Under the pieces are notes generated by a model. The model was not told the origin of the DNA and ran no database searches. It saw nothing but the letters and a program-made list of their open reading frames with translations. Shown here in pieces: positions 1 to 42,139 of a stretch of DNA of 64,000 nucleotides; within the stretch, counting starts at the first letter, position 1; each line of letters begins with the position of its first letter. The stretch is from a bacterium SCSIO 12741. GTDB taxonomy: Bacteria; Bacteroidota; Bacteroidia; Flavobacteriales_G; Salibacteraceae. The position numbers and the translations under genes were made by a program. Location of the stretch: the NCBI GenBank assembly GCA_024398055.1, contig CP073749.1:62001-126000 (forward strand), read 5' to 3'.

Positions 1-2
1 TT

Positions 3-23136: not shown

Positions 23137-23724
23137 TCAGCTGACTATTTTCTTGATGGTAAGAAGAATTACTCTGATGTAATTCAAGAACCCCGGATTC
23201 TCAATAAACTTTTGGTTCAATCGGATTTTATCCGGCATGATGGTGTCTATGTAAAACTGCTCCGGGTCATCGGCCTTTTCGAGCAATTCATTTTCATTGG
23301 AGTATTCAATGGATGCGTAGTCAGTTATTCCCGGTAGAACCGAAAGTACTTTGAGTTGCTCGTGGGAATAAAGTCTCACGTATTTACGAACTTCAGGTCT
23401 TGGTCCAACGAGACTCATATCCCCTTTAAACACGTTGATCAGTTGAGGTAGCTCATCCAGTTTCCAAGCTCTAAGGTATTTTCCTACGGAAGTAATTCGG
23501 CTATCCGCCATTCCAACCGTTAGCTGACCTTTACTCTCTGAGTCCACCTTCATCGTACGAAATTTGATCAGGTAAAAATCGCGATTCCATTTTCCTACCC
23601 GCTGTTGGTGAAAAAAGATAGGACCTTTGGAGGTGAAGTAAACTGCCAATCCAATCAGAACCAAAAGAGGCCACAAAAAGAGGAGCCCCAGGAAACTGAA
23701 AATCAGATCGGCCAATCGATTCAT
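23137..23724 (-). CDS. Polyprenyl-phosphate sugar-1-phosphate transferase (priming enzyme)
   Basis: Starts polysaccharide repeat-unit assembly by moving a sugar-1-phosphate from a nucleotide sugar to undecaprenyl phosphate. At 195 residues it is the short PglC/WcaJ-C-terminal type: one membrane segment (FLGLLFLWPLLVLIGLAVYF), GPIFFHQQRVGKWNRDFYLIKFRTM with the conserved Arg/Lys-Phe-Arg-Thr-Met, SVGKYLRAWKLDELPQLINVFKGDMSLVGPRPE, and a membrane-associated C-terminus. It is the last gene of the polysaccharide locus and overlaps the aminotransferase stop. Confidence 0.9.
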   Translation of the reverse strand: MNRLADLIFSFLGLLFLWPLLVLIGLAVYFTSKGPIFFHQQRVGKWNRDFYLIKFRTMKVDSESKGQLTVGMADSRITSVGKYLRAWKLDELPQLINVFKGDMSLVGPRPEVRKYVRLYSHEQLKVLSVLPGITDYASIEYSNENELLEKADDPEQFYIDTIMPDKIRLNQKFIENPGFLNYIRVILLTIKKIVS

Positions 23725-24938
23725 CCCATCACTTTTTGAACGGCAGACTTCACCGCATCGATCACGGCATCAATCTGTTCATCGCTGATATCGTAGAATA
23801 CCGGAAGGGTAATTTCACAAGCATACTGGGCAAAGGCGTTGGGATAGGGATCTATGCTGTAGCCTCTTTCCCGGTACGCGGTAAACATGGGAAGCGGTTG
23901 AAAATGGACATTCACAGCTACCTGTTTCTCAGTAATGGCATCAATGATTTGATCGCGCTGCCCCTCGGTAGCGTCTTTGATCCGAAGCATGAAAATGTGG
24001 TAAGATCCTTTACTTTCCTCACTCTCGTAAATCGGTAACTGAGCCCAGGGCTCAGAAGAGAATCCAGCACTGTAACGATCAAAAATGTACTTTCTCTTAG
24101 CCAGCATGTCGGAATCGTAGCGCTCCAGCTCCACCAAGCCAAGTGCGGCCTGAATATCGGTCATGTTGCACTTGAATCCAGGCTCCACTATATCGTAGCG
24201 CCATCCTCCAGCCTTGGTTTTGGCCAGGGCGTCTTTGGTTTGCCCATGAAGCGACTTAATTCTGAGTTGCTTGTAGATTTCGTCGTTATCAAAAGGTTCA
24301 GGAAGGTTAAGCGTTAATGCTCCTCCTTCTGCGGTACAGAGATTTTTGACGGCATGAAATGAAAAGGCTGAAAAGTCGGCCAACGACCCAGAGCGTTTTC
24401 CCTTGTACCAGGCACCAACGGAGTGTGCAGAATCGGACAATAGGAGAACCCGCCCTAAAGTTTCCTGCACTTCATTAGACGGGCTAAACATTCCCCGAAC
24501 TCCAGGTTCGCGGATCAATTCGTTAATCCCATCGTAATCACAAGGCCACCCGCCGATATCTACAGGCATAATGGCTTTGGTTCGCGGGGTGATGGCCGCC
24601 TTGATGGCTTCCAGGCTAATATTAAAATCATCGCCTATATCCACAAAAACCGGACGTGCCCCACAATGCAAAATCACATTACCGGTAGCACTATAGGTGT
24701 AGGCCGGTAGAATAACCTCATCTCCTTCACCAATGCCAAACCAACGTAAGGCCAGTTCCAACCCGGCGGTAGCAGAGTTGAAACAAACAACCCGAGGAGC
24801 ACCGGTATATTCGGCTAAACGTTCCTCAAAAAGCTTGGTTTTCGGGCCGGTGGTAATCCAACCCGAGTTGAGCACTTCAACGACCGCATCGGTCATTTTT
24901 TGATCCATCCTTGGAGGTGAAAAAGGTACTTGTGTCAT
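23721..24938 (-). CDS. DegT/DnrJ/EryC1/StrS sugar aminotransferase
   Basis: PLP enzyme that makes an amino sugar from a keto-sugar nucleotide. The 405-residue protein has PLP-binding Asp169 (LLLSDSAHSVGAWY) and Schiff-base Lys198 (SFHAVKNLCTAEGG), with the usual start (GWITTGPKTKLFEERLAEYTG) and end. In this locus it would produce an amino or acetamido sugar precursor for the polysaccharide, possibly the site later amidated. Its start region partners with the downstream priming transferase by a four-base overlap. Confidence 0.9.
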   Translation of the reverse strand: MTQVPFSPPRMDQKMTDAVVEVLNSGWITTGPKTKLFEERLAEYTGAPRVVCFNSATAGLELALRWFGIGEGDEVILPAYTYSATGNVILHCGARPVFVDIGDDFNISLEAIKAAITPRTKAIMPVDIGGWPCDYDGINELIREPGVRGMFSPSNEVQETLGRVLLLSDSAHSVGAWYKGKRSGSLADFSAFSFHAVKNLCTAEGGALTLNLPEPFDNDEIYKQLRIKSLHGQTKDALAKTKAGGWRYDIVEPGFKCNMTDIQAALGLVELERYDSDMLAKRKYIFDRYSAGFSSEPWAQLPIYESEESKGSYHIFMLRIKDATEGQRDQIIDAITEKQVAVNVHFQPLPMFTAYRERGYSIDPYPNAFAQYACEITLPVFYDISDEQIDAVIDAVKSAVQKVMG

Positions 24939-27400: not shown

Positions 27401-28345
27401 TTATTCTGCAACAATCTGATACACCTGATACCCTTTGGAGTCGGCGGCAATGAGCTTGCATTGGTTGACAAGAAACTGATCGAATGTGGGTGAAAACTTC
27501 ATGAGCTTTTCGGCGTGAAGCAGGTAAGTACAATTCAAGTCTTCAGTTAGGTAGCGGGAGAGTTCCGGTTCGGATCGATCTTCCATCAATGCCACAGGAC
27601 CATCCTTCGAATACAGATCGTCGTACCCAGCCCAATAGTAATGGCCTTTGCGGCTGGTATAAACATAAAAGGCGGGAACGTTGTTGACCAGAAAGTCGCC
27701 TTCTGGCAATTCCTCTTCGATGTACAAATAAATATCCTTGACTGATTTTGTTGTATTGGTTGTCATAGAATCTAAAACGGGAGATTCTTCGGTTTTCGTC
27801 TGAGCGGGCTCTTCTTTTTTTGCAGGTTGAAAATCGCTCAGCCGAGAAGCATAGCGTTCCCACAAATCGAAACGAAAAAAGAAAGCGGTGTTGAGTAAAG
27901 TCAAAACACCCAGTACCATCAGCAAACGAAAACGATCACTGGCTACGAACAAACGATTGAGTAAATAGGCAACAATGAGCAGGGTAAAAGGCACCAGGGT
28001 AAGTTGGTAGCGATCGTTGTAGTAGCCTAATGCTGCTACGATCAGAGAAGTGATCAGGTAAATGATGGCCAGCAGAATGGCCTTGCCTTTTAGCCTTTGA
28101 CCCGCTTTATAAAAGAGCAGGGCCAAAATGGCCATAAGTATTCCAAAGAATCCCGTTAGGCTTAAATCGGTGATGGTGCCCAGGTAACCATTGAGCCAAA
28201 GCTTAGGTGCGGTCTCAATGTTTCGGGAGATCAAGTTGGCATTTCCATTGGGATCGGCGATGCGCTCTGCCATCAGCAACACGGGTGCTATACCCGTAAG
28301 CACCATCGTGACGGCAATCCAAGCGTTATTTTTTCTTTTCTCCAT
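27401..28345 (-). CDS. Membrane protein, second member of duplicated cassette (short copy)
   Basis: About 314 residues with roughly five N-terminal transmembrane helices and a soluble C-terminal part. The motif APKLWLNGYLGTITDLSLTG aligns with LRRWANGYLGTLFRFTYIGT in the 565-residue protein at 30814-32511, and the fold order is the same. It therefore belongs to the same family. The ATG at 28345 (MEKRKNNAW) is preferred to the upstream one because it begins two bases after the stop of the preceding gene. I do not recognise the function; a role in lipid-linked sugar transfer is inferred from its place. Confidence 0.65.
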   Translation of the reverse strand: MEKRKNNAWIAVTMVLTGIAPVLLMAERIADPNGNANLISRNIETAPKLWLNGYLGTITDLSLTGFFGILMAILALLFYKAGQRLKGKAILLAIIYLITSLIVAALGYYNDRYQLTLVPFTLLIVAYLLNRLFVASDRFRLLMVLGVLTLLNTAFFFRFDLWERYASRLSDFQPAKKEEPAQTKTEESPVLDSMTTNTTKSVKDIYLYIEEELPEGDFLVNNVPAFYVYTSRKGHYYWAGYDDLYSKDGPVALMEDRSEPELSRYLTEDLNCTYLLHAEKLMKFSPTFDQFLVNQCKLIAADSKGYQVYQIVAE

Positions 28346-28347
28346 AC

Positions 28348-29370
28348 CTAAAAAATCCAACCGGTCCCCCAAAATGTATCGATCACGTAATGGTAGCCTC
28401 CAAAGAGGAGTGCAAGCGCGGCCACCTGGGCCATTTTAGGCCAAACAATGGTTTTCTGAATGGTGAGATAAACCACCAATGCCAGTAACTCGATTCCTGC
28501 AAATATGGCCCCTATGGAATGCATGTAGGCCTGAAAACCCATGAACACACCTAAGGTAATGTAGTGCCTTTTCTCGGGATTTACGGGCCATTGAATTAAG
28601 ACCAAAACCGTGGCCAACAAAAAGAAGATCCGTGCCGAATCAAGGTGAAACTGCAGGGCATTAAAAATTAATCCATAGTTGAGTATAAAGAAGAGGGTCA
28701 ACCAAAAGGACTGATCTCTAAAATACAAACGAAGTATGCCATAGAGCAGCAAAGCCAGTAATAAAAGATAAAAGCTGGAATAGGCTCTAAAATACAGGGC
28801 ATCCGATGGACCAACAACAGAATCACTCAGCGATTCCAGGGTAAAATTCAAGGGATAGGCAAAAGCATGTCGCCCGACGTAAAAGAAACCGGAGTTTTCG
28901 AAGTAGGCGTATTTGGAATAGGTAATGGCTCGGTCTCTTCCAAGCTGTTTTCCCAAAGCCAGGTATTCGAAGGCATCATGCTCGCTCACCGGCTTTTTGT
29001 AGGCATAAAACAAGGCCACCATCAAAACCATTCCAACAGCCAATGTGCCCACCATAAATTGCCAAACAGCAATTCCTTTTAATCGCTGGAAGACCAAAAC
29101 CCAAGATCTATTCAGGAGGCTCCAGGGCAGGAATACCCCCAAAGGCACCAAGGCTAACCCTACATGAACCCATGCTGGTAAGCCAGGTAATAAAAGCATC
29201 ACGATATTGATCAACCAAATGCCAATCAAAGAAGCACTTCCAAGTCCGATGGCTAATGGAATGGGCAAGGGCCACTCTGGCCATTTGCGAGCCACAAGAA
29301 CGCTTAAAGACAGTCCAGGTAAAATCTGGAACAACAAAGTCTTGATCAGATATGCCGTAATAATGCCCAC
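28348..29370 (-). CDS. Multi-pass membrane protein, first member of duplicated cassette (short copy)
   Basis: A 340-residue, very hydrophobic protein of about nine transmembrane helices. Its periplasmic loop FEYLALGKQLGRDRAITYSKYAYFENSGFFYVGRHAF resembles FEYAATGKALAQSKSIDFLNPFYNGPGSFTRHSFHAPG in the protein at 32508-34139, and both end in GTGWIF. This is the layout of the GT-C (PMT/ArnT-like) superfamily, with an acidic pair in the first loop (SEHDAFEY). A polyprenyl-linked sugar transferase role is likely but not proven. It is followed at once by its partner gene. Confidence 0.65.
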   Translation of the reverse strand: MGIITAYLIKTLLFQILPGLSLSVLVARKWPEWPLPIPLAIGLGSASLIGIWLINIVMLLLPGLPAWVHVGLALVPLGVFLPWSLLNRSWVLVFQRLKGIAVWQFMVGTLAVGMVLMVALFYAYKKPVSEHDAFEYLALGKQLGRDRAITYSKYAYFENSGFFYVGRHAFAYPLNFTLESLSDSVVGPSDALYFRAYSSFYLLLLALLLYGILRLYFRDQSFWLTLFFILNYGLIFNALQFHLDSARIFFLLATVLVLIQWPVNPEKRHYITLGVFMGFQAYMHSIGAIFAGIELLALVVYLTIQKTIVWPKMAQVAALALLFGGYHYVIDTFWGTGWIF

Positions 29371-29375
29371 TTGAT

Positions 29376-30146
29376 TTAAAACAGGTTATAGAGTTTTTCT
29401 TTCAATTCTTCTTCCTTGGGGTAGTTGATCAATACGGATCGGTTGGTGTTTTGGTAAACGAACATACTCCCTGCGGCTACCGCCGAAGCTCCACCCTCTC
29501 GAATGGCGGCTTGAAAATCGGACATGTCTTTGGCCCCACCCAAGGCTACAACGGGCACTTCGACCGCATCGGCCACCTGCTTGATCACTTCCAGATCGTA
29601 GCCTGTAAAAAGTCCATCGTTGTCCACCGAGTTTACCAATATCTCACCAGCACCAGCATCCTCTGCCCGCTTGGCAAATTCAGCTGGACTTAGTTTGGTA
29701 TTCTTACTTCCCGAACGAATGTAGGCCGACTTCTTTCCAAATAAGTTTTTCTTGACGTCGATAGAACAGACAATACTTTGATTGCCGTAAATGGCCGCAG
29801 CTTCTGTGATCAATCCCGGGTTTTCGAAGGCAGCTGTGTTGAGCGATACCTTTTCAATTCCGGCTTTGAATATGGCTTTGATCTGATCGAGAGTGGAAAT
29901 ACCACCTCCGTAGCATACTGGCATAAAACACTCCGAGGCAAACTCCATGATGCGACGCATATCGGGCACCTTCTTTTCCTTGGTAGCGGTAATGTCCAAA
30001 AAGATCAATTCGTCAACGCCCTTGTCATTGAAAATCTTAACCGCATTGATCGGATCGCCGATGTATTGAGGCTTACCAAATTTCCTTGTTTTCACCAGTC
30101 CAGATCCCTTAAGGGACAATACCGGAATAACTCGAATTCGTTGCAT
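29376..30146 (-). CDS. hisF: HisF-type cyclase subunit of the surface-sugar amidotransferase module (WbuZ-like)
   Basis: A 256-residue TIM barrel of the HisF/WbuZ group. Family motifs: MQRIRVIPVLSLKGSGLVKT at the start, ELIFLDITATKEKK, PVCYGGGIST and VALGGAKD. Compared with true histidine-pathway HisF it has the SLKGSGLVKTRKF start and LDITAT of the polysaccharide branch (AglZ/HisF2). No other histidine genes lie nearby, while a WbpG homologue sits in the same locus. It probably channels ammonia to WbpG with HisH. Starts four bases after the hisH stop. Confidence 0.85.
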   Translation of the reverse strand: MQRIRVIPVLSLKGSGLVKTRKFGKPQYIGDPINAVKIFNDKGVDELIFLDITATKEKKVPDMRRIMEFASECFMPVCYGGGISTLDQIKAIFKAGIEKVSLNTAAFENPGLITEAAAIYGNQSIVCSIDVKKNLFGKKSAYIRSGSKNTKLSPAEFAKRAEDAGAGEILVNSVDNDGLFTGYDLEVIKQVADAVEVPVVALGGAKDMSDFQAAIREGGASAVAAGSMFVYQNTNRSVLINYPKEEELKEKLYNLF

Positions 30147-30149
30147 AAA

Positions 30150-30770
30150 TCAATAGTTATTGGCGAAGTTCTTAAGCAATTGCATGCCAAAACGATGGCT
30201 TTTCTCGGGGTGGAACTGAGCTCCCAGAATGTTGTCTTTTTCAAGGGCACAGGTAAAGTCATATCCGTAGTGGGTAGTACCCATCACATCGGCTGAGTTT
30301 TCGCAAACTACATGGTAACTGTGTACAAAGTAGAAGCGACGTTCTTCTTCAAATCCATCAAAGAGGCGGCTGTTGTTTTCCACCTTTACATCGTTCCAGC
30401 CCATATGCGGAACCTTTAATCGCTTGGGGTTTTCGTTGAAAACAAATTTCCGCGTATCGGCTTCAAACCAACCTAAACCTTTTACATCCGGAGCTTCTTC
30501 ACTTCCCTGGGTCAGTAGTTGCATGCCCAGGCAAATACCCAAAATCGGTGTTTTTTCGGTGAGTACTTTTTGGTTCAACATTTCCTCCCAACCCGACTCG
30601 CGTAGCTTCTGCATGCCGTGCCCAAAATTTCCTACTCCCGGAAGAATGAGTTTCTCCGCATCCTTGGCTTTTTCAGGATCCGCAATAATCTGGGATTTGA
30701 CCCCAATTTTCTTGAGGATGTTTTTGATTGAAAATAGGTTTCCTACTTCGTAATCAATGATGGTAATCAT
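30150..30770 (-). CDS. hisH: HisH-type glutaminase subunit of the surface-sugar amidotransferase module (WbuY-like)
   Basis: Class-I glutamine amidotransferase of 206 residues that releases ammonia from glutamine. The catalytic Cys is in GICLGMQLL and the His-Glu pair is in QFHPEKS. It pairs with the HisF-like protein just downstream. The locus context and the WbpG gene at 36805-37941 point to amidino- or amide-sugar formation rather than histidine synthesis, as known for P. aeruginosa WbpG/HisH2/HisF2. Confidence 0.87.
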   Translation of the reverse strand: MITIIDYEVGNLFSIKNILKKIGVKSQIIADPEKAKDAEKLILPGVGNFGHGMQKLRESGWEEMLNQKVLTEKTPILGICLGMQLLTQGSEEAPDVKGLGWFEADTRKFVFNENPKRLKVPHMGWNDVKVENNSRLFDGFEEERRFYFVHSYHVVCENSADVMGTTHYGYDFTCALEKDNILGAQFHPEKSHRFGMQLLKNFANNY

Positions 30771-30813: not shown

Positions 30814-32511
30814 TCATCCGATCTGTTGTAGCGAGCAATGTTTAAGTGTGATAAAATATCCGTCGCTGATGTAGGTTCCAAAATAAACCTCACCATCCTT
30901 TTCCAGTTCAAACTCAAAGGGCAGCTCCATCACCTTTCCAAAATCCTCTGAAGAGTAAGTATTTTCAATCCGGGCATCCTGCTCTCCAATCACCTTGAGC
31001 CAGAACATAAGCTCGCCCTTTTGATTTTCGTCTTCCGCAGTCAACCGAACATTCAATCGGTATTTTCCTGCTTTTAGTTTAACACTTCGGCGATTAAACA
31101 TCCTTCCACTCGTTCCGTCCGATCGAATTTCCAATCGCAGCGGATCGTAGTTACCGTTGTAAACCGTAAAGTTGCTATCTACTAATCCAAAATCAAGGTA
31201 CCCCTGATTGAGGTATGGGAAGGCGGAGGTATCCACAAAACCGAGGTAAAGTAAATGCAGGTTTTCACCGACGTAGGCATTGCCCAGTTTAAGCGATTCA
31301 AAGGTTTGCAAGGAATCGGGTAATTTGAAATACCAATTGGCATTTACTTTTCGGGAGGGTTCTAAGGGTATTCCGTTGAGCAAAATTTCTTGTTTTTCTA
31401 ACCAGGTATCATGCTGATTAAAACTCAGACATAGTTCTTTCCAGCTCGCTTTGCGTTCAATAGACGGAAGCTTAAACCGTGCATTGGCCTTGAGTTCACC
31501 CGATTTGGAAACATTGGACTTTCTAAACTGAAACAATTTGGATTCCATATTCAGCCAGGCAATGTTTTCGTTGGGGTCATCCTTGAGGCGGTAGAGTTTG
31601 TAGCCTTTATCCTCACCAATCAAATAGGCTCCTTTGCGCGCCAGAAAAAACAATTCAGGAATGTAGTATTCGCGGTACGGGTAAAAAAGCATGTAGCGCG
31701 ATCCATAGTCTTGCTTGAGCTTTTGAAAAGCCTGCTGAAAAGTACTTTCATTTAAACGGTATCCTGAATCCTGAACCATGGGAAACAGGTAATCCAAAGA
31801 ATCAACCGTAACCATTCCCCGGTACACACGGTTTTTCATTACCGTACTAATTCCATAGGTCTGAGCAGGTATATCGGTAAAGTAAAACCAATTGCTGGCA
31901 TGAGCTACCGTAAGTTGATTATCGGGGTTGATCATTTGTTTGCGCTCCATCTCCTCGTACAAATCTGTAGGAGCCGAAGCCGATTGAGATTGTGCTAAAC
32001 GAATCTTGAGAAAATGACTGAATTTCCCCAGGTTCATCATAGGATTGATCATAATAACCAGAAACAATCCTACACCCAAACGGAATCGCCAACTGCGATC
32101 TACTCCAGATGCCCACTCCCCTACCATGGCCAAAACAAACAAGGTATTGATGACTACCGTGGTACTGAGGTAGCGGAAATTGGTGTATCCCTTAACTCCG
32201 AGGAGAAGCAGCATGAACAAGTAGAACAGAAATAATCCTTTCTGCCAAGGCACACGGGTTTTCCAGGTCAAGGCAAAACGAACCATGGCCGGAATGGCCA
32301 ATAAACTCAAAGTACCGATGTAGGTAAAGCGGAAAAGAGTTCCCAGGTATCCGTTGGCCCATCTTCGGAGCGGCCCGTCAATTCCTTGTGAGCTGGCCAA
32401 AGACAAGGCATGCGTACGATCGGTAAGCAGGTAAAAGATCAGCAACAAGGCCATCAATAAGACCAAACCAATCCAGTACTTCCGGGGCGATATGTTAATC
32501 TGCTTGCTCAT
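30814..32511 (-). CDS. Membrane protein, second member of duplicated cassette (long copy)
   Basis: A 565-residue protein. Residues ~1-180 contain about five transmembrane helices with the motif LRRWANGYLGTLFRFTYIGT, shared with the 27401-28345 protein. A long soluble part of nearly 400 residues follows, ending in a beta-rich segment of the carbohydrate-binding or jelly-roll type (KAGKYRLNVRLTAEDENQKGELMFWLKV). The short paralogue lacks this C-terminal extension. Function unknown. It overlaps its partner gene by four bases (ATGA). Confidence 0.6.
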   Translation of the reverse strand: MSKQINISPRKYWIGLVLLMALLLIFYLLTDRTHALSLASSQGIDGPLRRWANGYLGTLFRFTYIGTLSLLAIPAMVRFALTWKTRVPWQKGLFLFYLFMLLLLGVKGYTNFRYLSTTVVINTLFVLAMVGEWASGVDRSWRFRLGVGLFLVIMINPMMNLGKFSHFLKIRLAQSQSASAPTDLYEEMERKQMINPDNQLTVAHASNWFYFTDIPAQTYGISTVMKNRVYRGMVTVDSLDYLFPMVQDSGYRLNESTFQQAFQKLKQDYGSRYMLFYPYREYYIPELFFLARKGAYLIGEDKGYKLYRLKDDPNENIAWLNMESKLFQFRKSNVSKSGELKANARFKLPSIERKASWKELCLSFNQHDTWLEKQEILLNGIPLEPSRKVNANWYFKLPDSLQTFESLKLGNAYVGENLHLLYLGFVDTSAFPYLNQGYLDFGLVDSNFTVYNGNYDPLRLEIRSDGTSGRMFNRRSVKLKAGKYRLNVRLTAEDENQKGELMFWLKVIGEQDARIENTYSSEDFGKVMELPFEFELEKDGEVYFGTYISDGYFITLKHCSLQQIG

Positions 32512-34139
32512 CTAAAAATCCAACCGGTTCCTATCGCCATATCCAAGGCGTAATGTATGGCTCCAAAGGCCAGAAAAAACAATCCTGTAATGATTCCTGA
32601 TTTTACTCTATCGCCTATCGTATTCTTGGCCACCAATAGTGTGATACCGGCTAATCCTACCGCCAAAATGGTATTCATGGAATGGGAAAAAGCACTAAAA
32701 CCGAGCGCCATTCCAAACAAGGCTGCCAGATTGGTCGATGGTTTTTGCAAGAACAATCCCGCCATAAGGATAGCCGAATACAAAGTGGCAATACGCAACA
32801 TGTCGATGTGGTTGTTCAAACCAAAGGACAGAAAGCTAAAACTGGCCAACAAAGCAATAACTGCCAGCCAGGCCAACCACTCCCCTTTTTGCTTGACCAG
32901 GCGAAAAACGCCGATCAGCATCATTACGGCCAGAAACAGGTTAACCACTTTGTACCAGCGAATTTCATCTACACTGAAAAAGGAATTGACCAGCGACTCC
33001 CAGGTCATCAATAAGACAAATCCGGGGGCATGAAAGGAATGCCGGGTAAAACTACCTGGGCCATTGTAAAAAGGATTGAGAAAATCGATGGACTTACTTT
33101 GAGCCAGGGCTTTTCCCGTGGCAGCGTATTCGAAAATATCTGCTGAACCATCGAGCGTGTGAACGCTGTTTCGAGCCCCAATGCAAAGAACCAGTATTCC
33201 TAAAAACACGAATACGCCAGACCTAACGGCCTTCAGCAAATCATGCCTTGTAATTTTTAGGTGGTATTCCTTTTGCTCCACGAGCTTCTGTTCCCACTCT
33301 TTCAACCTATGACCTACGGAAGACCAGGACTCACGAGCTCTTTTTCTTCTTTGAATATGCTCCTTGCGGTAAGGAAAATAGAGTCCCAAATAGATGGCAA
33401 ATACAGTTCCGATGTAGAATAACTCGGTGGAATGAGGAAGAAGAATAAGCAAGTAGTAAAGCAGAAGGTTGGTAAACATAAGGGAGAAAATCCCCGAAAG
33501 GGCAAGCACCAGGTACTTATCCAAATGCTCATTGAGTCGATGCTTAAACCAGGGATACAAGACCTGCGGAAACCAACCAAAAAACAAAATGATTTTGAGC
33601 AGAAAAAAGAAGTTACCTGAAAACAGTTTACTCAAAGCAAATCGGAGAAAGTGATAATCCCCCCTCCAGTTCAAGATGGGCTTCAGGTAGGGTACATTCG
33701 ATACATTGGGCCAGTCTTCAGGTCCGGTATTCAATTTCCAGGCAGTATATTGCTGACCATTGATTTCGACTGATGATTCTGAAAATTGCAATTGCTCACC
33801 CGAGAATACCAATTGGAAGGTATCCAGCTGAAAGGTCATGGAGGTAATTTTGTCCCGATTTTCAGCAGAGGTGTAAACCAGAACTTCCCGCAGGTGATTG
33901 GGGTAATCCCAAGTTCCGGTTGCATTGGGCTCAAAGGGACGATCTGCACCTCGAAAAGCCTTACCGTAAATCTCGCCTGAAAACGGGCCGTCCGAAGTTT
34001 CAATGGCAAGCTCCACATTGTCAATAAAATGGTACTTATTGAATCCATGCAAGATCTGAATAGCCATTTTGTAGCCTACATAGGCGGTAACACCCAGTAA
34101 CAACAAAACCAACAGGGACTTACGTAAAAGACCATTCAT
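32508..34139 (-). CDS. Multi-pass membrane protein, first member of duplicated cassette (long copy)
   Basis: A 543-residue protein. One N-terminal transmembrane helix precedes a ~130-residue beta-rich extracytoplasmic domain (residues ~35-165). A membrane core of about ten helices follows, which aligns with the protein at 28348-29370 and ends GTGWIFR. The loop with SADIFEYAATGKALAQS resembles a GT-C first loop. It is longer than its paralogue because of the N-terminal domain. The role is inferred from its place in the locus: probable membrane glycosyl- or group-transferase. Confidence 0.62.
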   Translation of the reverse strand: MNGLLRKSLLVLLLLGVTAYVGYKMAIQILHGFNKYHFIDNVELAIETSDGPFSGEIYGKAFRGADRPFEPNATGTWDYPNHLREVLVYTSAENRDKITSMTFQLDTFQLVFSGEQLQFSESSVEINGQQYTAWKLNTGPEDWPNVSNVPYLKPILNWRGDYHFLRFALSKLFSGNFFFLLKIILFFGWFPQVLYPWFKHRLNEHLDKYLVLALSGIFSLMFTNLLLYYLLILLPHSTELFYIGTVFAIYLGLYFPYRKEHIQRRKRARESWSSVGHRLKEWEQKLVEQKEYHLKITRHDLLKAVRSGVFVFLGILVLCIGARNSVHTLDGSADIFEYAATGKALAQSKSIDFLNPFYNGPGSFTRHSFHAPGFVLLMTWESLVNSFFSVDEIRWYKVVNLFLAVMMLIGVFRLVKQKGEWLAWLAVIALLASFSFLSFGLNNHIDMLRIATLYSAILMAGLFLQKPSTNLAALFGMALGFSAFSHSMNTILAVGLAGITLLVAKNTIGDRVKSGIITGLFFLAFGAIHYALDMAIGTGWIFR

Positions 34140-35654: not shown

Positions 35655-36827
35655 TCAGGCTATCGTATGGTAGAGCTCGATAATTTGTTTTTTCTCTTCG
35701 GACCAGTTGAATTGGCCTCGAACTTTTTCCAGCTGATCTCTTTTGGATTGAATTTCTTCCGGCGTGATTTGTTCCAACCAAGTTCTTAATGCCTCATCCT
35801 CATGCGGATCTGCGGACCAACCAATTCCTTGCTCCACCACCACCTTTTCCATTCCGGGAAAATGACTTGCTAAAACCGGAGTTCCCGCTGTGAGGTATTC
35901 AAAGAGCTTATTGGGTGCTGAATAGTAGTAACTTAGATTCTTTTGCTCAATCAAACACAACCCAACATCGGCCGTGTGTGAATGGGCCAGAATATCAGAA
36001 ACCGGAACAAAACCCATGTGGTGAATGTGAGCATACTTGTCCAAATATGGACGAATGGTTTCTTCCATAAATCCGTTACCCATGAATACGAGGTGCTTTT
36101 TCGGAAAATCGGCAAAAACGCGTAGATATCGCTCAATATTTCGGGCACCGATCAATCCCCCCTGAAAAACAAAAACGAGCTCATTTTCAGGTATCCCGAA
36201 TCGCTCCCGGTAAGAAGCCACTTTCTGGTTAGGATCAAAAGGATTTTCTGGAACATTTTGAGCCAAGTACACCTTTTTCAAGCCATATTCCTTCTGGTAC
36301 CACTCTTGAATACCACCACTCACGACCAAAACGGCATGCGATTGTTTAACCAGCATTCGCTCCACTTTGGCGTAAATCTTCCGCAACAAAGGCGAAGGAT
36401 CCTTCACGGCCTCCAGCTCATGCGGTTCATACACCAGTTTGCTCCCCTTGAGCCACTTAAACAGGCACGACAAGGGCAAGGTCTCCACACTATGGGCATT
36501 GACATACTTAACCGGCTTAAACAGAAAGGAAAGCAAAATGCGAAGGTTCCACTCCACCATCAGCATCACCTTGTGAAAGATGCCCATGTTGTTGAGCGAA
36601 AACCGAAACCAGGTCTTCACCCGCCATACCTCGATGGTGTCGCTGATTTTTTCATGCTCCTCCAAGCCTTCTTCCAGGAAAGCTACGATCATCACCTTGT
36701 CCACAATTCCCAGCTCTTCCACCACCTTAGCCGATTTGATCAATCGAGCCTCAGACTTGAAGGGCGTTTGGGAGATATGAAGGGCGATGTTTTTGGGCAT
36801 GGCTCTATTCCATCTCATCCACATCAT
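35655..36827 (-). CDS. Glycosyltransferase family 4
   Basis: A 390-residue retaining GT-B enzyme. The N-terminal domain holds KYVNAHSVETLPLS and KLVYEPHELE; the C-terminal nucleotide-sugar domain holds FVFQGGLIGARNIERYL, HLVFMGNGF and the donor-binding motif APNKLFEYLTAGTPVLAS. It should transfer a sugar during repeat-unit assembly. It overlaps the wbpG-like gene's end by 23 bases, so translation is probably coupled. Confidence 0.85.
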   Translation of the reverse strand: MMWMRWNRAMPKNIALHISQTPFKSEARLIKSAKVVEELGIVDKVMIVAFLEEGLEEHEKISDTIEVWRVKTWFRFSLNNMGIFHKVMLMVEWNLRILLSFLFKPVKYVNAHSVETLPLSCLFKWLKGSKLVYEPHELEAVKDPSPLLRKIYAKVERMLVKQSHAVLVVSGGIQEWYQKEYGLKKVYLAQNVPENPFDPNQKVASYRERFGIPENELVFVFQGGLIGARNIERYLRVFADFPKKHLVFMGNGFMEETIRPYLDKYAHIHHMGFVPVSDILAHSHTADVGLCLIEQKNLSYYYSAPNKLFEYLTAGTPVLASHFPGMEKVVVEQGIGWSADPHEDEALRTWLEQITPEEIQSKRDQLEKVRGQFNWSEEKKQIIELYHTIA

Positions 36828-37941
36828 AAGCCGTCATCGGCTTAAAGGGAAGGATGTATTTAAACACCCACAGGATGAGCTTTTTGTAGCGATTGTAAAA
36901 AGGGAAATAGCTCGGGTAGTCCGTAAATTTCTTGTTGGGAGCATTCCACATTTCCTGGAATTCTTCTTCGGAAATATCGAGCTTCTTCATCACGTATTCG
37001 CGGTCCTCTTCCATCTGTTCCGGATCGTAGGGAGGCTGAGCCAATTCTTTGAGCGCATCTTCCCGTTCCATCATTCCGGAGCGAACCAAAGCCGATAGAG
37101 TCACCTTACGCTTATCAAATCCAAACTTCTTGGGTAGCCAGTAGCTGATGATAAACTTGGTAAAAATGTTTTCGTGGTGGTGTCCGCCGTAGTATTCCCA
37201 GTCCACCTTTTCCTCGATGATCTTTTTGGCAGCCGGCTTGTCGTAAGGCAGGTACCAGAAAGGTCTTACGTTTTTGATCCCCTTTACCATTCCGTAGTAG
37301 AGGTAATCAAACATGGTCAGGTTTGGGTAGGACTTTAATTTCACCTTGTTTTTACGGGCGATATGCTTCACCATTTTGGCGTCTACATAGGTCCATTCTT
37401 CCGGCTGTTTTCCTTCCGAGCGGAAATCGTGACCGATCAATACGTGTTTTACTCCTTCCTTAGCCGCAATGCGGTACAGGGCTGAAGTAATTCCAATATC
37501 AGTTGTTCCATCCGGCCAAGGTAGAGATGCCTTCATGAAAGAGCGGTGAATACCCTTCATCTCATCCCAGTTCATCACGTAGGTTCTCAATTCGATATTG
37601 AGGATGTCCAGGGCCTTTTTGATGTTGTTTACAGCGATTTCACTGTGCCAGCCGTTGTCGAAGGTTACGGCCAATGGGCGCAATCCCATTTCCTTGGCCA
37701 AGAGCAACAGGTAAGTTGAGTCGGTTCCTCCACTTACTCCAACAATGCAGTCGAATTGTTTGCCCTTACCGTTTTTCTTCATCTCGGCAACCAGTGCTTC
37801 CCAATCGGCCTTCCCTTTTTCGCCCAAAGGGTAGTCGGCTGAAAGCAGGTCATGAGCCTTGCAGTAGTTGCATTCCCCAGATTTATCAAATTTGATATCG
37901 GGTACCGACTCGTCCAACACACAGCGGTTACATACTTTCAT
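36805..37941 (-). CDS. wbpG: N-acetyl sugar amidotransferase, WbpG family
   Basis: ATP-dependent amidotransferase of the PP-loop type, 378 residues. The N-terminus has a four-Cys zinc-type site (CNRCVLDESVPDIKFD then CNYC), then the ATP pyrophosphatase loop GVSGGTDSTYLL. In P. aeruginosa and E. coli O145-like systems WbpG/WbuX uses ammonia from HisH/HisF to turn an N-acetyl group into an acetamidino group on a surface sugar. All three subunits are in this locus. The gene sits between the DUF354 gene and GT4. Confidence 0.9.
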   Translation of the reverse strand: MKVCNRCVLDESVPDIKFDKSGECNYCKAHDLLSADYPLGEKGKADWEALVAEMKKNGKGKQFDCIVGVSGGTDSTYLLLLAKEMGLRPLAVTFDNGWHSEIAVNNIKKALDILNIELRTYVMNWDEMKGIHRSFMKASLPWPDGTTDIGITSALYRIAAKEGVKHVLIGHDFRSEGKQPEEWTYVDAKMVKHIARKNKVKLKSYPNLTMFDYLYYGMVKGIKNVRPFWYLPYDKPAAKKIIEEKVDWEYYGGHHHENIFTKFIISYWLPKKFGFDKRKVTLSALVRSGMMEREDALKELAQPPYDPEQMEEDREYVMKKLDISEEEFQEMWNAPNKKFTDYPSYFPFYNRYKKLILWVFKYILPFKPMTAYDVDEME

Positions 37942-37947
37942 GAATAT

Positions 37948-38985
37948 CTATTTTGTATAGGATTCAATCTTCTGGATAAACAGGCCGTTGATGTCTGTTT
38001 TTTCCTGAAGCAATTTCTTTCTTTTTTCTCGCCCTTTCTCTTCCAACTGCGGATCGCCCAGCCATTCGAGGGTACGTTCGCGGGTACGATCAAAACGATC
38101 GTCTCCATCGGCGTTAAACACCAGGTCAAAGGCTTTTTCCTGCTCGTCCAAACTTCCTGCAGTCAACTGGCTCACGAAGATGGCATGCGTACCCAATACG
38201 GCCGCCTCGGAGGCCATGGTAGCTCCTTCTCCCACGTAAGCTGAAGCGTAATAAAGCACGTGGTGAATTTTCTCAAAAGGAACTTTTACCTGGTAGACGG
38301 CCAAATCATCGGCCAGCTTTTCCTCGGATGAGATGAGCACTTTGGCATGCGGTAAGATGGCTTCTACCAATTCCCTTTTCGCCGCTTCGGAATAACCCTT
38401 GAAGCCAATATCGTGGCTGGCATTCCAGGAAACAAAACGGATGAATACAAATCGCTCATCATCCTTGATCCCCATATCGCGAATCACCTGACGATCGGGT
38501 TGAAAGTAATCGGGATGCAGGTAGAATAGCTCCTTGTAGGTGGGCATTCTTTTCTGCTTGGGACCCAAATTCGTACGAAAAGTCGTAGGCGTAATAATCT
38601 CTTTGGAAAACCACTGGCAAAACTTCAAGCTAATGGTAGAGCGCTCTGTGTCTTCAAAAATCAAGTGGGGCTTTCCGGCAATCGCTGCATTCATCGCCAA
38701 CATAGGACTCGCCCGACCGATGAATACATCCGGCTTAAACTTGCGGCACTTTAACCACATTTTGAAGGTGATGGAAAACAGCAACCAGGCTTTGTCAAAC
38801 ACATTCTTACCGGTGGAATTTCCAACCAACTCGTAGTCTAATCCAAACTTTTCGAGCAGTTCGATATCGCCGTCTTTGTCAATGGCCAGAATGAGCACTT
38901 CATGTCCCTCCTTCTGCAACCTCAAAATGATCTGACGAAACTGGTGGATCCAGGCAGGATGCTCTATGGAAATGGCAACTTTCAT
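37948..38985 (-). CDS. DUF354 family protein (UDP-GlcNAc 2-epimerase/GT-B-like fold)
   Basis: A 345-residue soluble protein of DUF354 type. It opens with KVAISIEHPAWIHQFRQIILRLQKEGHEV and has PDVFIGRASPMLAMNAAIAGKPHLIFEDTE, followed by the late SEAAVLGTHAIFVSQLTAGSLDEQE. The fold is related to UDP-GlcNAc 2-epimerase and GT-B enzymes; proteins of this family recur in surface-polysaccharide loci of archaea and bacteria, but the reaction is not established. The wbpG-like gene starts six bases downstream of its stop. Confidence 0.82.
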   Translation of the reverse strand: MKVAISIEHPAWIHQFRQIILRLQKEGHEVLILAIDKDGDIELLEKFGLDYELVGNSTGKNVFDKAWLLFSITFKMWLKCRKFKPDVFIGRASPMLAMNAAIAGKPHLIFEDTERSTISLKFCQWFSKEIITPTTFRTNLGPKQKRMPTYKELFYLHPDYFQPDRQVIRDMGIKDDERFVFIRFVSWNASHDIGFKGYSEAAKRELVEAILPHAKVLISSEEKLADDLAVYQVKVPFEKIHHVLYYASAYVGEGATMASEAAVLGTHAIFVSQLTAGSLDEQEKAFDLVFNADGDDRFDRTRERTLEWLGDPQLEEKGREKRKKLLQEKTDINGLFIQKIESYTK

Positions 38986-38998
38986 GCAGAATCCCCGA

Positions 38999-41035
38999 TT
39001 AACGGTACAATTTTTTCATCCGGTTTACCCGATCGATGGCCTTAGCAGTATCCAAACCAATCAGGCTAAAATACTCGACCATGGACTGCAATCTCGGGCG
39101 GTTTTCCTCGTAGATTTTTGACATTCCAAATTCACGGGTAATCATTCCTTCGCGAATCTGGTTACTTCTAAAGGTGTCAAACTCGGTAAAACCGGCTACG
39201 GTGTAATACACGTAGTTGTAGAAGGCAGCGGTTCCGTCACCAATTCTCCAAGTGGAGGTGGTATCCGGTGATGTCTCCCAGTTGTAGCCGTCGATCAAAG
39301 TGGTGTTGATTTCTTCTTCGTCCCAGGGAATGTAGTCGAACAACAGCAAGTACACATCCCTTGGCTCCATGTAGTAGGCTTTAAAAGCACTGTAGGTATC
39401 CGGAATCGACGGGTTGATGTACCCCGGGTTCATCATAAAGTTCTTGGCGTAGTACAGCGGCATCTGCAACTTGGCCAAGGTAGATTGTTTGTCAATCCGG
39501 TCTTTGGTAAAGTTCGGTTTGATCCCAGCAAATCCGGCTTTAAAGTCGGTGTTTTCCAACTTATTCTCCATCCAGATATCACAAGGAATTCCGGTTTGCT
39601 GGCGAATCTTGTTAACGTAAACGAAGAAGTGCTTATCCCCGGCCATAAACAAGGGAATCATTCCCAATCGAGGTTGCTTTAACCAGGCACCCACATTCAG
39701 GCGAATGTTTCTTCGCTTCATTTTTATATCGGCCGATACCAGAATGTTTTCCACCCCGAGTTTACCGGTCATTCGGGCAATGTTTCTTCGGGCCAGGTCG
39801 GTTACCATTCCCCAGTCGTAGGTGAAGGTAAGCGGATTCATACCCAGCTCTTTAACGATGTAGTGCAATCCGAAACTACTGTCTCGTCCACCACTAAAGG
39901 CGATTACACAGTCAGGTGAACCGTCTTTGGAGCGGTATTTCTCCAAAACTTTGAGCAGGTCTTCCTTCTTGTTTTCCTTCAGCCCTTTTGTTTGGTAGTT
40001 GTTGCAGTAGTTGCAAACGCCACCCTGGTCGAAGTGAATGTGTGGGAAGGTTTCCGGAAGCAAGCATTTTTTACAACGCTTAAGCTCCTTGATTTCGTCG
40101 GTGTTGTATTCCAACCTTTTCTCAAGGGTGGATAGATTGAGGTTGTCCAGGTTAACGAACTCGCTCTTGTGTTTTTTCTGTTGGGAGTGATCCTTGATTT
40201 CTCCAGCTGGAACATAGATCTCAGACTGAGGAGAATTCTGGGTCTTTTCGAAGGTAAAATTCTGTACTTCAAAAGACTTCATTCCAATAGCGATTCCCGT
40301 TCTCGGGGCTAACCAATGGATGTCTTTGTTTCCGTAACGCTCTTGCAGGCCAACTTGATCAGCCAATGTTTTCATGATGTATTCTTCCGAACCGAAGATC
40401 AACAGACTCTGGTCTGATGCGATCCAGTAGTAAAGTGATCCTGTGTTGGTCGCCAGAATAAACAAATCCCGGTCTGCACATTGTACCGCGATGGAAGCGG
40501 CTCCTTCAATCTCTTCAAACGTGGCCGTAACGGCAGCTGAAGCGGAAAGTCCGCCCTTCAATTTTTGAGAAAGGATACCTGCCAAAATCTCCGTATCCAC
40601 CTCGTAGTTGCGATCGATGGATCCCTGGAATTTTTGGAAAAGATCATCTACGTTGGTTACGATTCCGTTGTGAACCATCACCAATCCGTCTTTGATACAA
40701 GGCTGGTTGTTGTCGTTGTTTTCCTGGCTACCGTTGGTCACCAATCGAGAGTGAGCCGTAACGGCAATAGGAGAAGCCACATGGCCGTTTTCAAAACTGC
40801 CTTCAAAGCCGGCTTCTACAAACTTGCTGTAGGTTCCTGTTTTGATCAGCTCCGTCGCTGGGGTATCTTCTTTGAGTACCTGAATCGATTGGTTGGCCAG
40901 ATTTCTTACCGCGATTCCCGAAGATTCCTTTCCACGGGTTTCTGACAGCACAAATAGTTTTTGCAAAAGATCATCCGATTCCTTCCTGCTCAAATCGGCT
41001 TTTTCCTTAGCTACAAATCCAAAAATTCCACACAT
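38999..41035 (-). CDS. Fusion of class-II glutaminase and WbpG-like amidotransferase domain
   Basis: A 678-residue protein with an unusual layout. Residues 1-~250 are an Ntn-type glutamine amidotransferase (GATase_6): Cys2 nucleophile after Met removal (MCGIFGF), AHSRLVTNG (~94-102), VHNGIVTN (~121-128) and VDTEILAG. Residues ~320-678 resemble WbpG: Cys pairs 321/324 and 341/344 (CKKCLLPETFPHIHFD, CNYC) and PP-loop SGGRDS at 381-386. It therefore carries its own ammonia source and needs no HisH/HisF. AsnB, WbpS and WbtH have a class-II glutaminase with a different synthetase domain. It should amidate a sugar of this polysaccharide; the product (acetamidino sugar or uronamide) is unknown. The gene sits just downstream of the first glycosyltransferase of the locus. 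Confidence 0.82.
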   Translation of the reverse strand: MCGIFGFVAKEKADLSRKESDDLLQKLFVLSETRGKESSGIAVRNLANQSIQVLKEDTPATELIKTGTYSKFVEAGFEGSFENGHVASPIAVTAHSRLVTNGSQENNDNNQPCIKDGLVMVHNGIVTNVDDLFQKFQGSIDRNYEVDTEILAGILSQKLKGGLSASAAVTATFEEIEGAASIAVQCADRDLFILATNTGSLYYWIASDQSLLIFGSEEYIMKTLADQVGLQERYGNKDIHWLAPRTGIAIGMKSFEVQNFTFEKTQNSPQSEIYVPAGEIKDHSQQKKHKSEFVNLDNLNLSTLEKRLEYNTDEIKELKRCKKCLLPETFPHIHFDQGGVCNYCNNYQTKGLKENKKEDLLKVLEKYRSKDGSPDCVIAFSGGRDSSFGLHYIVKELGMNPLTFTYDWGMVTDLARRNIARMTGKLGVENILVSADIKMKRRNIRLNVGAWLKQPRLGMIPLFMAGDKHFFVYVNKIRQQTGIPCDIWMENKLENTDFKAGFAGIKPNFTKDRIDKQSTLAKLQMPLYYAKNFMMNPGYINPSIPDTYSAFKAYYMEPRDVYLLLFDYIPWDEEEINTTLIDGYNWETSPDTTSTWRIGDGTAAFYNYVYYTVAGFTEFDTFRSNQIREGMITREFGMSKIYEENRPRLQSMVEYFSLIGLDTAKAIDRVNRMKKLYR

Positions 41036-41042
41036 AAAAAGT

Positions 41043-42139
41043 CTATTTGTTTAATCGGTCATTGTCTTGAATATCCATCCACATTGCGAAGAATAGGATT
41101 GGAACGACCCGGTAAATAGGAAGAAGAACGCCAAAATGGGTTCGTATGACAGGGAGTAACCCTGAATGAATGACATCAATATTTTTAATCCGTAAGGAAT
41201 CGCCAATATCCCCAAGGCAAAGCTTAGGTGATACAGCAAAAACAGCGGGTGAAAATCGCGGATTAGGTACTTCTGGTAGAGACGCTGAAAAAACAGCTTC
41301 ATCAGCAACCAGGACACCTTCCGAATCACCTTCTTGATTTTCATTTTCGACTGCTCCCCTACCCGATACACAGGCTTAATCTCGATTTCACGAAGCGTGG
41401 CGCTGATGATGTTTAGCTTGACCAACATATCGTTGGGCATTCCGTAGCTCCGGTAGATATCGTAGATCTTAATCGAGCGAAGGGCATGTAGACTAATCGC
41501 CGTGTACCCAGTCTGCGTATCCGAAACCTTCCAGTATCCTGAAGCAATCTTGGTAAAAATGGAAAGGATGGAGTTTCCGAAAAAGCGGATTTTAGGAATC
41601 ACAATTTTAGAACTCGGGTGAATCAGGCGATTACCTTTTACGTAGTCAATGCCCTCTTCAATTACCGGTAGGCAAATCGATTCCAGTTCATCAGGATCCA
41701 TTTGACCATCACCAGCCATCACCGCAGTACAGTCAATGTTGTGGTCCTTACACCACTTGTATCCACGGGCAATAGCGGCGCCCACTCCCCCATTGTCGAT
41801 ATGATCGATGAGGATAATTCGATCCGTATCTTCCTGGGTATTGTAGACTTCCGACTTAACGTAGTATTTGATTTCTTCCACCTGAGCCTGGTGTACCACA
41901 ACATCGGCCTCGTTGTAGCGAGTCTTTACGATCTCCTTGTCAAACTCGGGAATCGTGGTGGTTTCGTGCGTATCCTTGGCAATGTAGTCGCGGATAACTT
42001 CCGAAGTCCGGTCTTTACTTTTATCGTTGATAATTACGATACGGTCCACAAAATCCGGCATGGTTTCGATCACCATTCCGATCTGTGTTTCCTCGTTGTA
42101 GGCCGGTACAACGACGGCCACGGTTTTCCCTTTTAACAT
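41043..42139 (-). CDS. Glycosyltransferase family 2 (dolichol-phosphate-mannose-synthase-like), frameshifted near its end
   Basis: First gene of the polysaccharide locus, ~365 residues. N-terminal GT-A domain: VAVVVPAYNEETQIGMVIETM, IINDKSKDRT (donor-site Asp), MAGDGQMDP and QTGYTAIS. Two C-terminal membrane helices follow. As read, the end is FQSYSSQCGWIFKTMTD with a stop at 41051. One extra C in the CC run (GG at 41096-41097 on the plus strand) gives FQSLFFAMWMDIQDN and a new stop at 41043-41045, which is the usual family ending. Predicted to make a polyprenyl-phosphate-linked sugar or extend the lipid-linked chain. Confidence 0.85.

What the first reader, a model, noticed from the sequence alone, without database searches (positions are those of the whole stretch)
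38999..41035. Class-II glutaminase fused to a WbpG-like amidotransferase domain, beside a complete HisH/HisF/WbpG system
The protein has a Cys2 Ntn-type glutaminase (MCGIFGF, VHNGIVTN) and a WbpG-like half with four Cys and SGGRDS. It can therefore make its own ammonia. The same locus also encodes the usual three-part system (wbpG 36805-37941, hisH 30150-30770, hisF 29376-30146). Known class-II sugar amidotransferases (WbpS, WbtH) are AsnB-like; WbpG-like enzymes known to me rely on HisH/HisF. Two different ammonia-delivery routes in one operon suggest two distinct sugar amidations, or one self-contained replacement. What is seen: motifs and order. Inference: substrates and products.
Basis: partly seen in the sequence, partly recalled or inferred. 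Interest (0 to 1): 0.75.

Follow-up and report, generated by a model that had tools for sequence, protein, structure and literature searches.

The report
Self-feeding sugar-amidating fusion enzyme
A bacterial surface-sugar gene cluster encodes one protein that joins an ammonia-making half to a sugar-modifying half, whereas related enzymes often sit beside separate ammonia-making partners; the design turns up in many bacterial phyla and no experimental study of it was found.

Summary
Confirmed. Window 38999-41035 (minus strand) encodes a 678-aa protein: a GlmS-type class-II glutaminase (Cys2, HNG) joined to an N-acetyl sugar amidotransferase (NASAT) domain (four Cys, SGGRDS). The AlphaFold model is confident (pLDDT 94.8, pTM 0.94); the C-terminal half matches solved NASAT 8wex (Z 23.7), not AsnB's synthase half. 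It is a family: 121 relatives in about 85,000 species genomes, 80 kept, 15 named phyla, one clade separate from WbpG (100/99). HisF lies within 5 kb of 17 of 40 standalone NASATs but 1 of 54 fusions; dedicated HisF2 occurs in 15 of 19 fusion-bearing genomes that also have a standalone NASAT and 0 of 31 that do not. I infer a self-contained glutamine-dependent sugar amidotransferase. The window's HisH/HisF/WbpG set is complete and separate; a third NASAT with its own HisH/HisF lies elsewhere in the genome. Most neighbourhoods look like surface-polysaccharide loci (69 of 82). Substrate, product and ammonia channel are untested. New variant of a known kind; seven paper searches showed no description.

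The parts
38999..41035 (-). Fusion gene, 678 aa: class-II glutaminase + N-acetyl sugar amidotransferase (NASAT)
40250..41035 (-). Class-II (Ntn, Cys2) glutaminase domain, residues 1-262; closest folds GFAT-1/GlmS/PurF (Z about 26)
   Evidence: Cys2 in 80 of 82 homologues, the other two lack the N-terminus in the frame read
39002..40087 (-). NASAT domain, residues 317-678; 8wex Z 23.7, 306 aligned, 25% identity
40004..40075 (-). Tetracysteine motif C321-x2-C324 ... C341-x2-C344 (zinc site in 8wex according to PMC10607449)
39878..39895 (-). PP-loop SGGRDS, residues 381-386
   Evidence: 82 of 82 homologues
41051..42139 (-). GT2 glycosyltransferase (weak AglJ / polyprenyl-phosphate sugar synthase-like), 15 bp upstream of the fusion; homologues in 26 of 82 fusion loci by tblastn
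37948..38985 (-). DUF354-type putative glycosyltransferase directly downstream; homologues in 13 of 82 fusion loci
36805..37941 (-). Standalone WbpG-type NASAT (SGGTDS, four Cys), synthase of the three-part system
35655..36827 (-). GT4 glycosyltransferase
30150..30770 (-). HisH-type class-I glutaminase of the three-part system
29376..30146 (-). AglZ/HisF2-type acetamidino-modification HisF, over the curated cut-off
32508..34139 (-). Membrane protein, homologous to the protein directly downstream of the fusion in L030 (PMT_2-like) and, weakly, to the GT-C neighbours of other fusions
30814..32511 (-). Second protein of that pair, related to 27401-28372
28348..29370 (-). Paralogue of 32508-34139 (second split GT-C-like pair)
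27401..28372 (-). Partner of 28348-29370
23721..24938 (-). DegT/PseC-like sugar aminotransferase of the same cluster
23137..23724 (-). Initiating sugar-phosphate transferase (Bac_transf) of the same cluster

Best explanation
The protein is a single-chain, glutamine-dependent N-acetyl sugar amidotransferase. The N-terminal Cys2 glutaminase releases ammonia from glutamine. The C-terminal PP-loop NASAT domain activates the oxygen of a sugar N-acetyl group with ATP (to AMP + PPi), and the ammonia displaces it to give an acetamidino (-NH-C(=NH)CH3) sugar. The fused glutaminase does the job that HisH/HisF do for WbpG. In this window the HisH/HisF/WbpG set most likely amidates a different sugar of the same surface glycan. 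Shown: domain content, catalytic motifs, a confident two-domain model, a single clade, and absence of HisF2 from the sampled genomes that have the fusion and no standalone NASAT. Inferred: ammonia channelling, acetamidino product, different substrates.
For: GlmS-type glutaminase signature with Cys2 and the HNG motif. NASAT signature and fold: TIGR03573 148 bits; 8wex at 25% identity, Z 23.7 over 306 residues. AF2 pTM 0.94 over both domains. Catalytic motifs kept across the family: SGGRDS 82 of 82, four Cys 81 of 82, Cys2 in 80 of 82. Fusion clade 100/100, SH-aLRT 99, and 100/99 after adding six low-scoring standalone NASAT-like rows. HisF within 5 kb: 17 of 40 standalone NASATs against 1 of 54 fusions, Fisher p 5e-7. 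HisF2 over cut-off in 15 of 18 fusion-bearing genomes with a standalone NASAT over the cut-off and 0 of 32 without (p 4e-10), or 15 of 19 and 0 of 31 if low-scoring standalones count (p 2e-9). Neighbours: 69 of 82 loci have at least one polysaccharide-type gene cluster member within 6 kb, 56 at least two.
Against: No activity is shown. The NASAT half scores below the curated WbuX cut-off and differs from both main standalone clades at 31 near-invariant positions, among them the TYDWGM...ARRN stretch, so the acceptor or even the chemistry may differ. The genomes in the statistics are not phylogenetically independent and many are MAGs; ordinary histidine-pathway HisF is probably present in most of them (44 of 50 have some HisF-family match) and its use is not excluded. 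The L030 homologue has lost three of the four zinc cysteines, so the zinc site is not strictly conserved. Thirteen of 82 loci show none of the labelled polysaccharide genes within 6 kb (several are short).
Confidence: 0.7

Rival explanations
1. The fusion makes a uronamide or another primary amide: it adenylates a carboxylate of a uronic acid or amino acid and adds ammonia, like AsnB-type sugar amidotransferases, and does not make an amidine.
For: Same glutaminase plus PP-loop layout as AsnB. Distinct residues in the synthase half. Some neighbourhoods hold UDP-sugar dehydrogenase, WbpB-, DegT- and NeuD-type genes, which recall the diacetamido-uronic acid pathway.
Against: The synthase half is NASAT by profile and fold, not AsnB. 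Loci L057, L060, L068 and L080 carry FnlA/FnlB/WecB-type (L-FucNAc or L-QuiNAc) genes beside the fusion and no labelled uronic acid gene in the 6 kb listed.
Confidence: 0.15
2. A refinement rather than an alternative of the main reading (so the odds overlap): the acceptor is not a nucleotide sugar but a polyprenyl-phosphate-linked sugar. The fusion works in a periplasmic decoration module: GT2 loads a sugar on the lipid phosphate, the fusion amidates it, a Wzx-like flippase turns it over and a GT-C enzyme transfers it.
For: GT2 and WZX clusters co-occur within 6 kb of the fusion (18 of 22 GT2 loci, p 5e-7) and GT2 with GTC827 (7 of 11, p 7e-3), uncorrected. The GTC827 model is a GT-C fold (ArnT Z 20, AglB Z 20.8) with a CBM-like C-terminal domain. 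In the window the GT2 lies 15 bp upstream and split GT-C-like pairs lie downstream.
Against: No Wzx homologue was found in the window, nor elsewhere in the genome with one query (which had no positive control). Sixty of 82 loci lack the GT2 within 6 kb by my clustering (tblastn finds a homologue in 26 loci); 18 loci instead have an initiating sugar transferase within 300 bp. The GT2 has no PDB sequence match, so its lipid-phosphate activity is only suggested by weak family matches.
Confidence: 0.25
3. The fusion and the locus HisH/HisF/WbpG set serve the same reaction: redundancy, with one of the two decaying.
For: Both NASATs lie in one run of same-strand genes.
Against: Both keep all catalytic motifs. 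WbpG is in another clade. Close relatives of this WbpG recur near a DUF354 gene and a fusion in L067 and L078, which fits two jobs better than decay; those two have, however, lost zinc-site cysteines.
Confidence: 0.08

Closest known systems
WbpG/WbuX N-acetyl sugar amidotransferase with HisH and HisF (TIGR03573; structure 8wex)
   Same: PP-loop SGGxDS, tetracysteine, NASAT fold, surface-polysaccharide context
   Different: Glutaminase is fused and class II instead of separate class I (HisH); HisF rarely nearby; separate clade; below the curated cut-off
AsnB-type asparagine synthetase and AsnB-like sugar amidotransferases
   Same: Class-II glutaminase followed by a PP-loop synthetase in one chain
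   Different: Synthase half is NASAT with a zinc-type Cys motif, not Asn_synthase; the glutaminase scores closer to GlmS
GlmS/GFAT
   Same: Glutaminase half (Z about 26, 21-22% identity)
   Different: No sugar isomerase (SIS) domain; PP-loop synthetase instead
Sphingomonas exopolysaccharide genes (PMC11340318, passages seen)
   Same: One list of mutant genes with WbuX + HisF2 + HisH and a further amidotransferase
   Different: There the further enzyme is labelled an exosortase-associated amidotransferase, not a NASAT fusion

Membership tests
NASAT superfamily (WbpG/WbuX/LpNASAT) | PP-loop SGGxDS | tested here: met
NASAT superfamily (WbpG/WbuX/LpNASAT) | Tetracysteine motif CxxCxn[GN]xCxxC (definition from PMC10607449) | tested here: met
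   window and 81 of 82 homologues; lost in L030
NASAT superfamily (WbpG/WbuX/LpNASAT) | NASAT fold | tested here: met
   8wex Z 23.7, rmsd 3.9, 306 aligned
NCBIfam TIGR03573 subfamily | Curated score cut-off 203.2 bits | tested here: not met
   148.4 bits; best fusion-type match 164 bits in 50 genomes. Score alone does not mark fusions: some standalone NASAT-like proteins also fall below (L227, L228, L230-L232)
WbpG-type three-part system | Partner HisH/HisF in the same locus | tested here: not met
   in the window the set is there with wbpG as its synthase; across the family 1 of 54 fusions has HisF within 5 kb and 2 of 82 loci have HisH and HisF within about 10 kb
NASAT superfamily (WbpG/WbuX/LpNASAT) | ATP-dependent conversion of N-acetyl to acetamidino | not testable with these tools
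   needs enzymology
AsnB family | Asn_synthase C-terminal domain | tested here: not met
   no Pfam Asn_synthase match at E up to 0.01; TIGR01536 matches residues 2-224 only, 28.7 bits
GlmS family | C-terminal SIS isomerase domain | tested here: not met
   no SIS match at E up to 0.01; GlmS model covers residues 1-219 only
Class-II (Ntn) glutamine amidotransferases | N-terminal Cys2 and glutaminase fold | tested here: met
Class-II (Ntn) glutamine amidotransferases | Glutamine hydrolysis and ammonia channel | not testable with these tools
   no enzymology; model coordinates not available

The most novel reading that the evidence does not exclude
The fusion founds a distinct, widespread class of self-contained amidotransferases that amidate a polyprenyl-phosphate-linked sugar. 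This would be an ArnT-like periplasmic decoration pathway (GT2, flippase, GT-C with a carbohydrate-binding domain) that puts positively charged amidino sugars on surface glycans.
Probability: 0.2. Interest if true: 0.7.

Novelty: new variant of a known kind. Interest (0 to 1): 0.5.

Why it matters
The ammonia supply of the enzymes that make amidino sugars is little studied as far as I know; the only solved NASAT that my PDB sequence searches found (8wex) is a synthase without an ammonia source. A single-chain version with its own glutaminase is a tractable subject for biochemistry and structure of the whole reaction. In the plasmid collection the three copies that cover the query are called 7-cyano-7-deazaguanine synthase, hypothetical protein and glucosamine 6-phosphate synthetase, so amidino-sugar capacity may be missed by annotation. 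The loci also suggest glycan decoration modules worth testing.

Tried and rejected
Rejected: AsnB-like synthase half. Rejected: assembly artefact or chance fusion. Judged unlikely: the fusion as a partner of the HisH/HisF of the window, by co-occurrence; this does not exclude use of the histidine-pathway HisH/HisF. Not decided: Wzx flippase for the window (none by tblastn with the neighbours' Wzx proteins; one protein query against the own genome empty and without a positive control). Led nowhere: paper searches for a described fusion and for the NRPS insertion. The phage collection gave no full-length match: of 68 records with a match, 0 cover 80% of the query. Given up on re-check: my first idea that fusions and standalones separate cleanly by WbuX score. 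One search showed that short-frame rows under the cut-off (two in G074, one each in G083, G156, G246 and, without a Cys motif found, G184) are standalone NASAT-like proteins with no glutaminase match in the stretch fetched, not broken fusions; I had first set the G074 rows aside as fragments. Six were added to the tree: the fusion clade held (100/99), though most of the six are long branches.

Rows dropped before counts. The related-loci search kept the best 80 of 121 relatives. Alignment A3 holds P0001 plus 72 of the 82 collected homologues: L036 (stops inside), L069 and L074 (no N-terminus) and near-duplicates L038, L055, L064, L091, L099, L105, L110 were left out. Counts near HisF: one search gave 17 of 39 and 1 of 55; I added G083:C106 to the standalones (40) and took two NRPS rows (G058:C36, G073:C41) out of and one omitted fusion (G060:C212:13098) into the fusions (54); within 10 kb the fusions are then 3 of 54. 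still used 37 and 53 (p 2e-7); the values given are those. Weaker rows (under about 60 bits, or second pieces of the same protein) were not used. L036/G044 (frame broken by stops) was coded by hand as a fusion, and G067:C5 (open frame 775 aa, no glutaminase match) as standalone. HisF rows under about 175 bits were not used; distances are between start coordinates. Two further genomes have a HisF2 match just under the cut-off (G048 308, G062 303 bits); both have a standalone NASAT. The genome counts used 50 of the 80 genome loci. The tree used 30 fusion, 21 standalone and 3 NRPS rows; one search used 28, 19, 3 and 6 low-scoring ones; L197 (no SGGxDS found by my script) and four wrong or fragmentary rows were left out, as was L234 (partial frame). 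LpNASAT itself was not placed on a tree. My gene calls in the neighbourhoods are a greedy longest-ORF method and miss genes, e.g. HisF in L048, recovered by tblastn.

Full report
OBSERVATION. The ORF at 38999-41035 lies on the minus strand and encodes 678 aa with MCGIFGF, VHNGIVTN, RCKKC...GVCNYC and SGGRDS. Pfam sees GATase_6/7 at 91-218. NCBIfam sees WbuX (TIGR03573) at 319-656 with 148 bits, under the cut-off of 203, and GlmS as the best glutaminase model. Against PDB sequences the C-terminal half hits the Legionella NASAT 8wex well, and the N-terminal half hits GlmS and, with the family profile, PurF. The stated wbpG, hisH and hisF genes are there and pass curated cut-offs.

STRUCTURE. The AlphaFold2 model from 73 aligned sequences has mean pLDDT 94.8 and pTM 0.94. 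Aligned to solved structures, the N-terminal half matches GFAT-1/GlmS/PurF (Z about 26) and residues 317-678 match 8wex (Z 23.7, rmsd 3.9, 306 aligned, 25% identity). E. coli AsnB aligns over 188 residues (Z 20.6, model range 2..473), and its sequence model covers the glutaminase only. The synthase half is therefore NASAT-like, not AsnB-like.

FAMILY. A scan of one genome for each of 84,980 species found 121 stretches encoding a relative; the best 80 were kept. The scan used two peptide patterns, so the number is a lower bound. Two near-identical contigs of the viral collection carry one too. Of these 82 homologues, SGGRDS is in 82, the tetracysteine in 81 and the Cys2 start in 80; the other two (L069, L074) lack the N-terminus in the frame read. 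The 75 with a named phylum fall in 15 phyla, two of them archaeal candidate phyla; most are MAGs, so a misplaced contig here and there is possible. In an even sample of 296 genomes of the window's phylum, 45 have a WbuX match over the cut-off; among the listed rows 5 genomes, the window's included, have a fusion-type match in a frame over 600 aa without the NRPS domains (one of these, G332, checked).

PHYLOGENY. Fusion NASAT domains form one clade: SH-aLRT 99 with 45 fusion rows, bootstrap/SH-aLRT 100/100 with 30, and 100/99 with 28 after six low-scoring standalone NASAT-like rows were added. It is separate from the WbpG-type clade (which holds the window's wbpG), from an SGGKDS clade (which holds the genome's third NASAT) and from an NRPS-embedded clade. 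The tool warns of long branches, and the order among the clades is not firm. Thirty-one positions are near-invariant in fusions and different from the majority letter in both main standalone clades, among them positions of the TYDWGM...ARRN stretch.

AMMONIA SOURCE. In 50 fusion-bearing genomes, a HisF-type match lies within 5 kb of 17 of 40 standalone NASATs but of 1 of 54 fusions (Fisher p 5e-7). HisF2 over its cut-off occurs in 15 of the 18 genomes that also have a standalone NASAT over the cut-off and in 0 of the 32 that do not (p 4e-10); if low-scoring standalones count, 15 of 19 and 0 of 31. HisH and HisF homologues of the window proteins occur in 2 of 82 fusion loci (up to 10 kb each side), L048 and L070, and both of these also hold a standalone NASAT. 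So HisF2 goes with the standalone enzyme, not with the fusion. But only 17 of 40 standalones have a HisF that near, the genomes are not independent, and many are MAGs. The genome of the window has three NASATs: the fusion, wbpG with HisH/HisF, and one at C1:2690700 with its own HisH/HisF directly upstream.

NEIGHBOURHOOD. Of 82 loci, 69 have at least one and 56 at least two polysaccharide-type genes (as labelled from cluster representatives) within 6 kb; 13 have none, several of them on short contigs. Two patterns stand out. In one, an initiating sugar-phosphate transferase lies next to the fusion (within 300 bp in 18 loci), with DUF354, GT4 or WecG-type transferases upstream and, in L057, L060, L068 and L080, FnlA/FnlB/WecB-type genes. 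In the other, a GT2, a Wzx-like flippase, the fusion and a membrane protein stand together. GT2 and Wzx co-occur in 18 of 22 GT2 loci (p 5e-7), and GT2 with the membrane protein in 7 of 11 (p 7e-3); these p-values are not corrected for the many pairs tried nor for relatedness. The membrane protein model (pLDDT 83, pTM 0.86) has the GT-C fold of ArnT and AglB (Z about 20) with a C-terminal domain like carbohydrate-binding modules. The window shares the GT2 (15 bp upstream of the fusion) and has two split pairs of related membrane proteins, but no Wzx was found. A fusion, a DUF354 gene and a close relative of the window's wbpG also lie together in L067 and L078, which favours two separate amidations in one glycan.

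MECHANISM (inferred). Glutamine is hydrolysed at Cys2, ammonia passes to the PP-loop site, ATP activates the sugar N-acetyl oxygen, and an acetamidino sugar results. The chemistry of the second half is taken from the NASAT literature: PMC10607449 (first of four parts of the text and searched passages read) states that the reaction joins ammonia to an N-acetyl group and probably uses ATP to AMP + PPi. A term search of that text found no HisH, glutamine or fusion.

PRIOR KNOWLEDGE. Paper searches in the held open-access library listed no paper that I recognised as describing a class-II glutaminase-NASAT fusion; I read from only three of the listed papers. PMC13329287 (one section and passages read) mentions WbpG-like and large multi-domain proteins but, in what I read, no such fusion. 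A Sphingomonas study lists WbuX, HisF2, HisH and another amidotransferase among genes that affect colony morphology, a precedent for two amidotransferase routes in one pathway (PMC11340318, passages only).

Noticed in passing
L222:1406-5827, L223:4357-8832, L224:4025-7798: NRPS proteins (Condensation, AMP-binding, PP-binding) with a NASAT-like domain (SGGKDS, four Cys) after the adenylation core and, in L222 and L223, before the match to its C-terminal subdomain. They form their own clade at 100/100; tblastn found no HisH/HisF or class-II glutaminase in the 10 kb fetched. The large multi-domain proteins named in PMC13329287 may be of this kind..
   Followed up: partly
L110:2814-11827 (also L109): Contigs of the viral collection with a 608-aa fusion downstream of a weak terminase large-subunit match and a DMFA2_C protein: a possible phage-borne glycan-modifying enzyme..
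   Followed up: partly
L030:10001-12034; L067:4838-6004; L078:6374-7537: NASATs that have lost zinc-site cysteines (three of four in the L030 fusion) yet keep the PP-loop; the two standalone ones are the closest relatives of the window wbpG on the trees..
   Followed up: partly
L227:1683-2816, L228:1695-2825, L230:437-1681, L231:2147-3184, L232:2304-3485: Standalone NASAT-like proteins (open frames of 346-415 aa) with SGGKDS or SGGRDS and a four-Cys motif that score below the WbuX cut-off and lie outside the main clades on the tree: possibly further subfamilies..
   Followed up: partly
window 27401-29370 and 30814-34139: Two paralogous split pairs of GT-C-like membrane proteins on either side of hisH/hisF..
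   Followed up: partly
L078:3180-12037: Two fusions and one standalone NASAT within about 9 kb of one contig (Ignavibacteriales)..
   Followed up: no
L225:12001-18821: Solidesulfovibrio plasmid: the fusion is annotated 7-cyano-7-deazaguanine synthase and stands near two asnB genes..
   Followed up: no
L001 (genome C1:2690700): A third NASAT (SGGKDS type) of the same genome with its own HisH and HisF directly upstream..
   Followed up: partly
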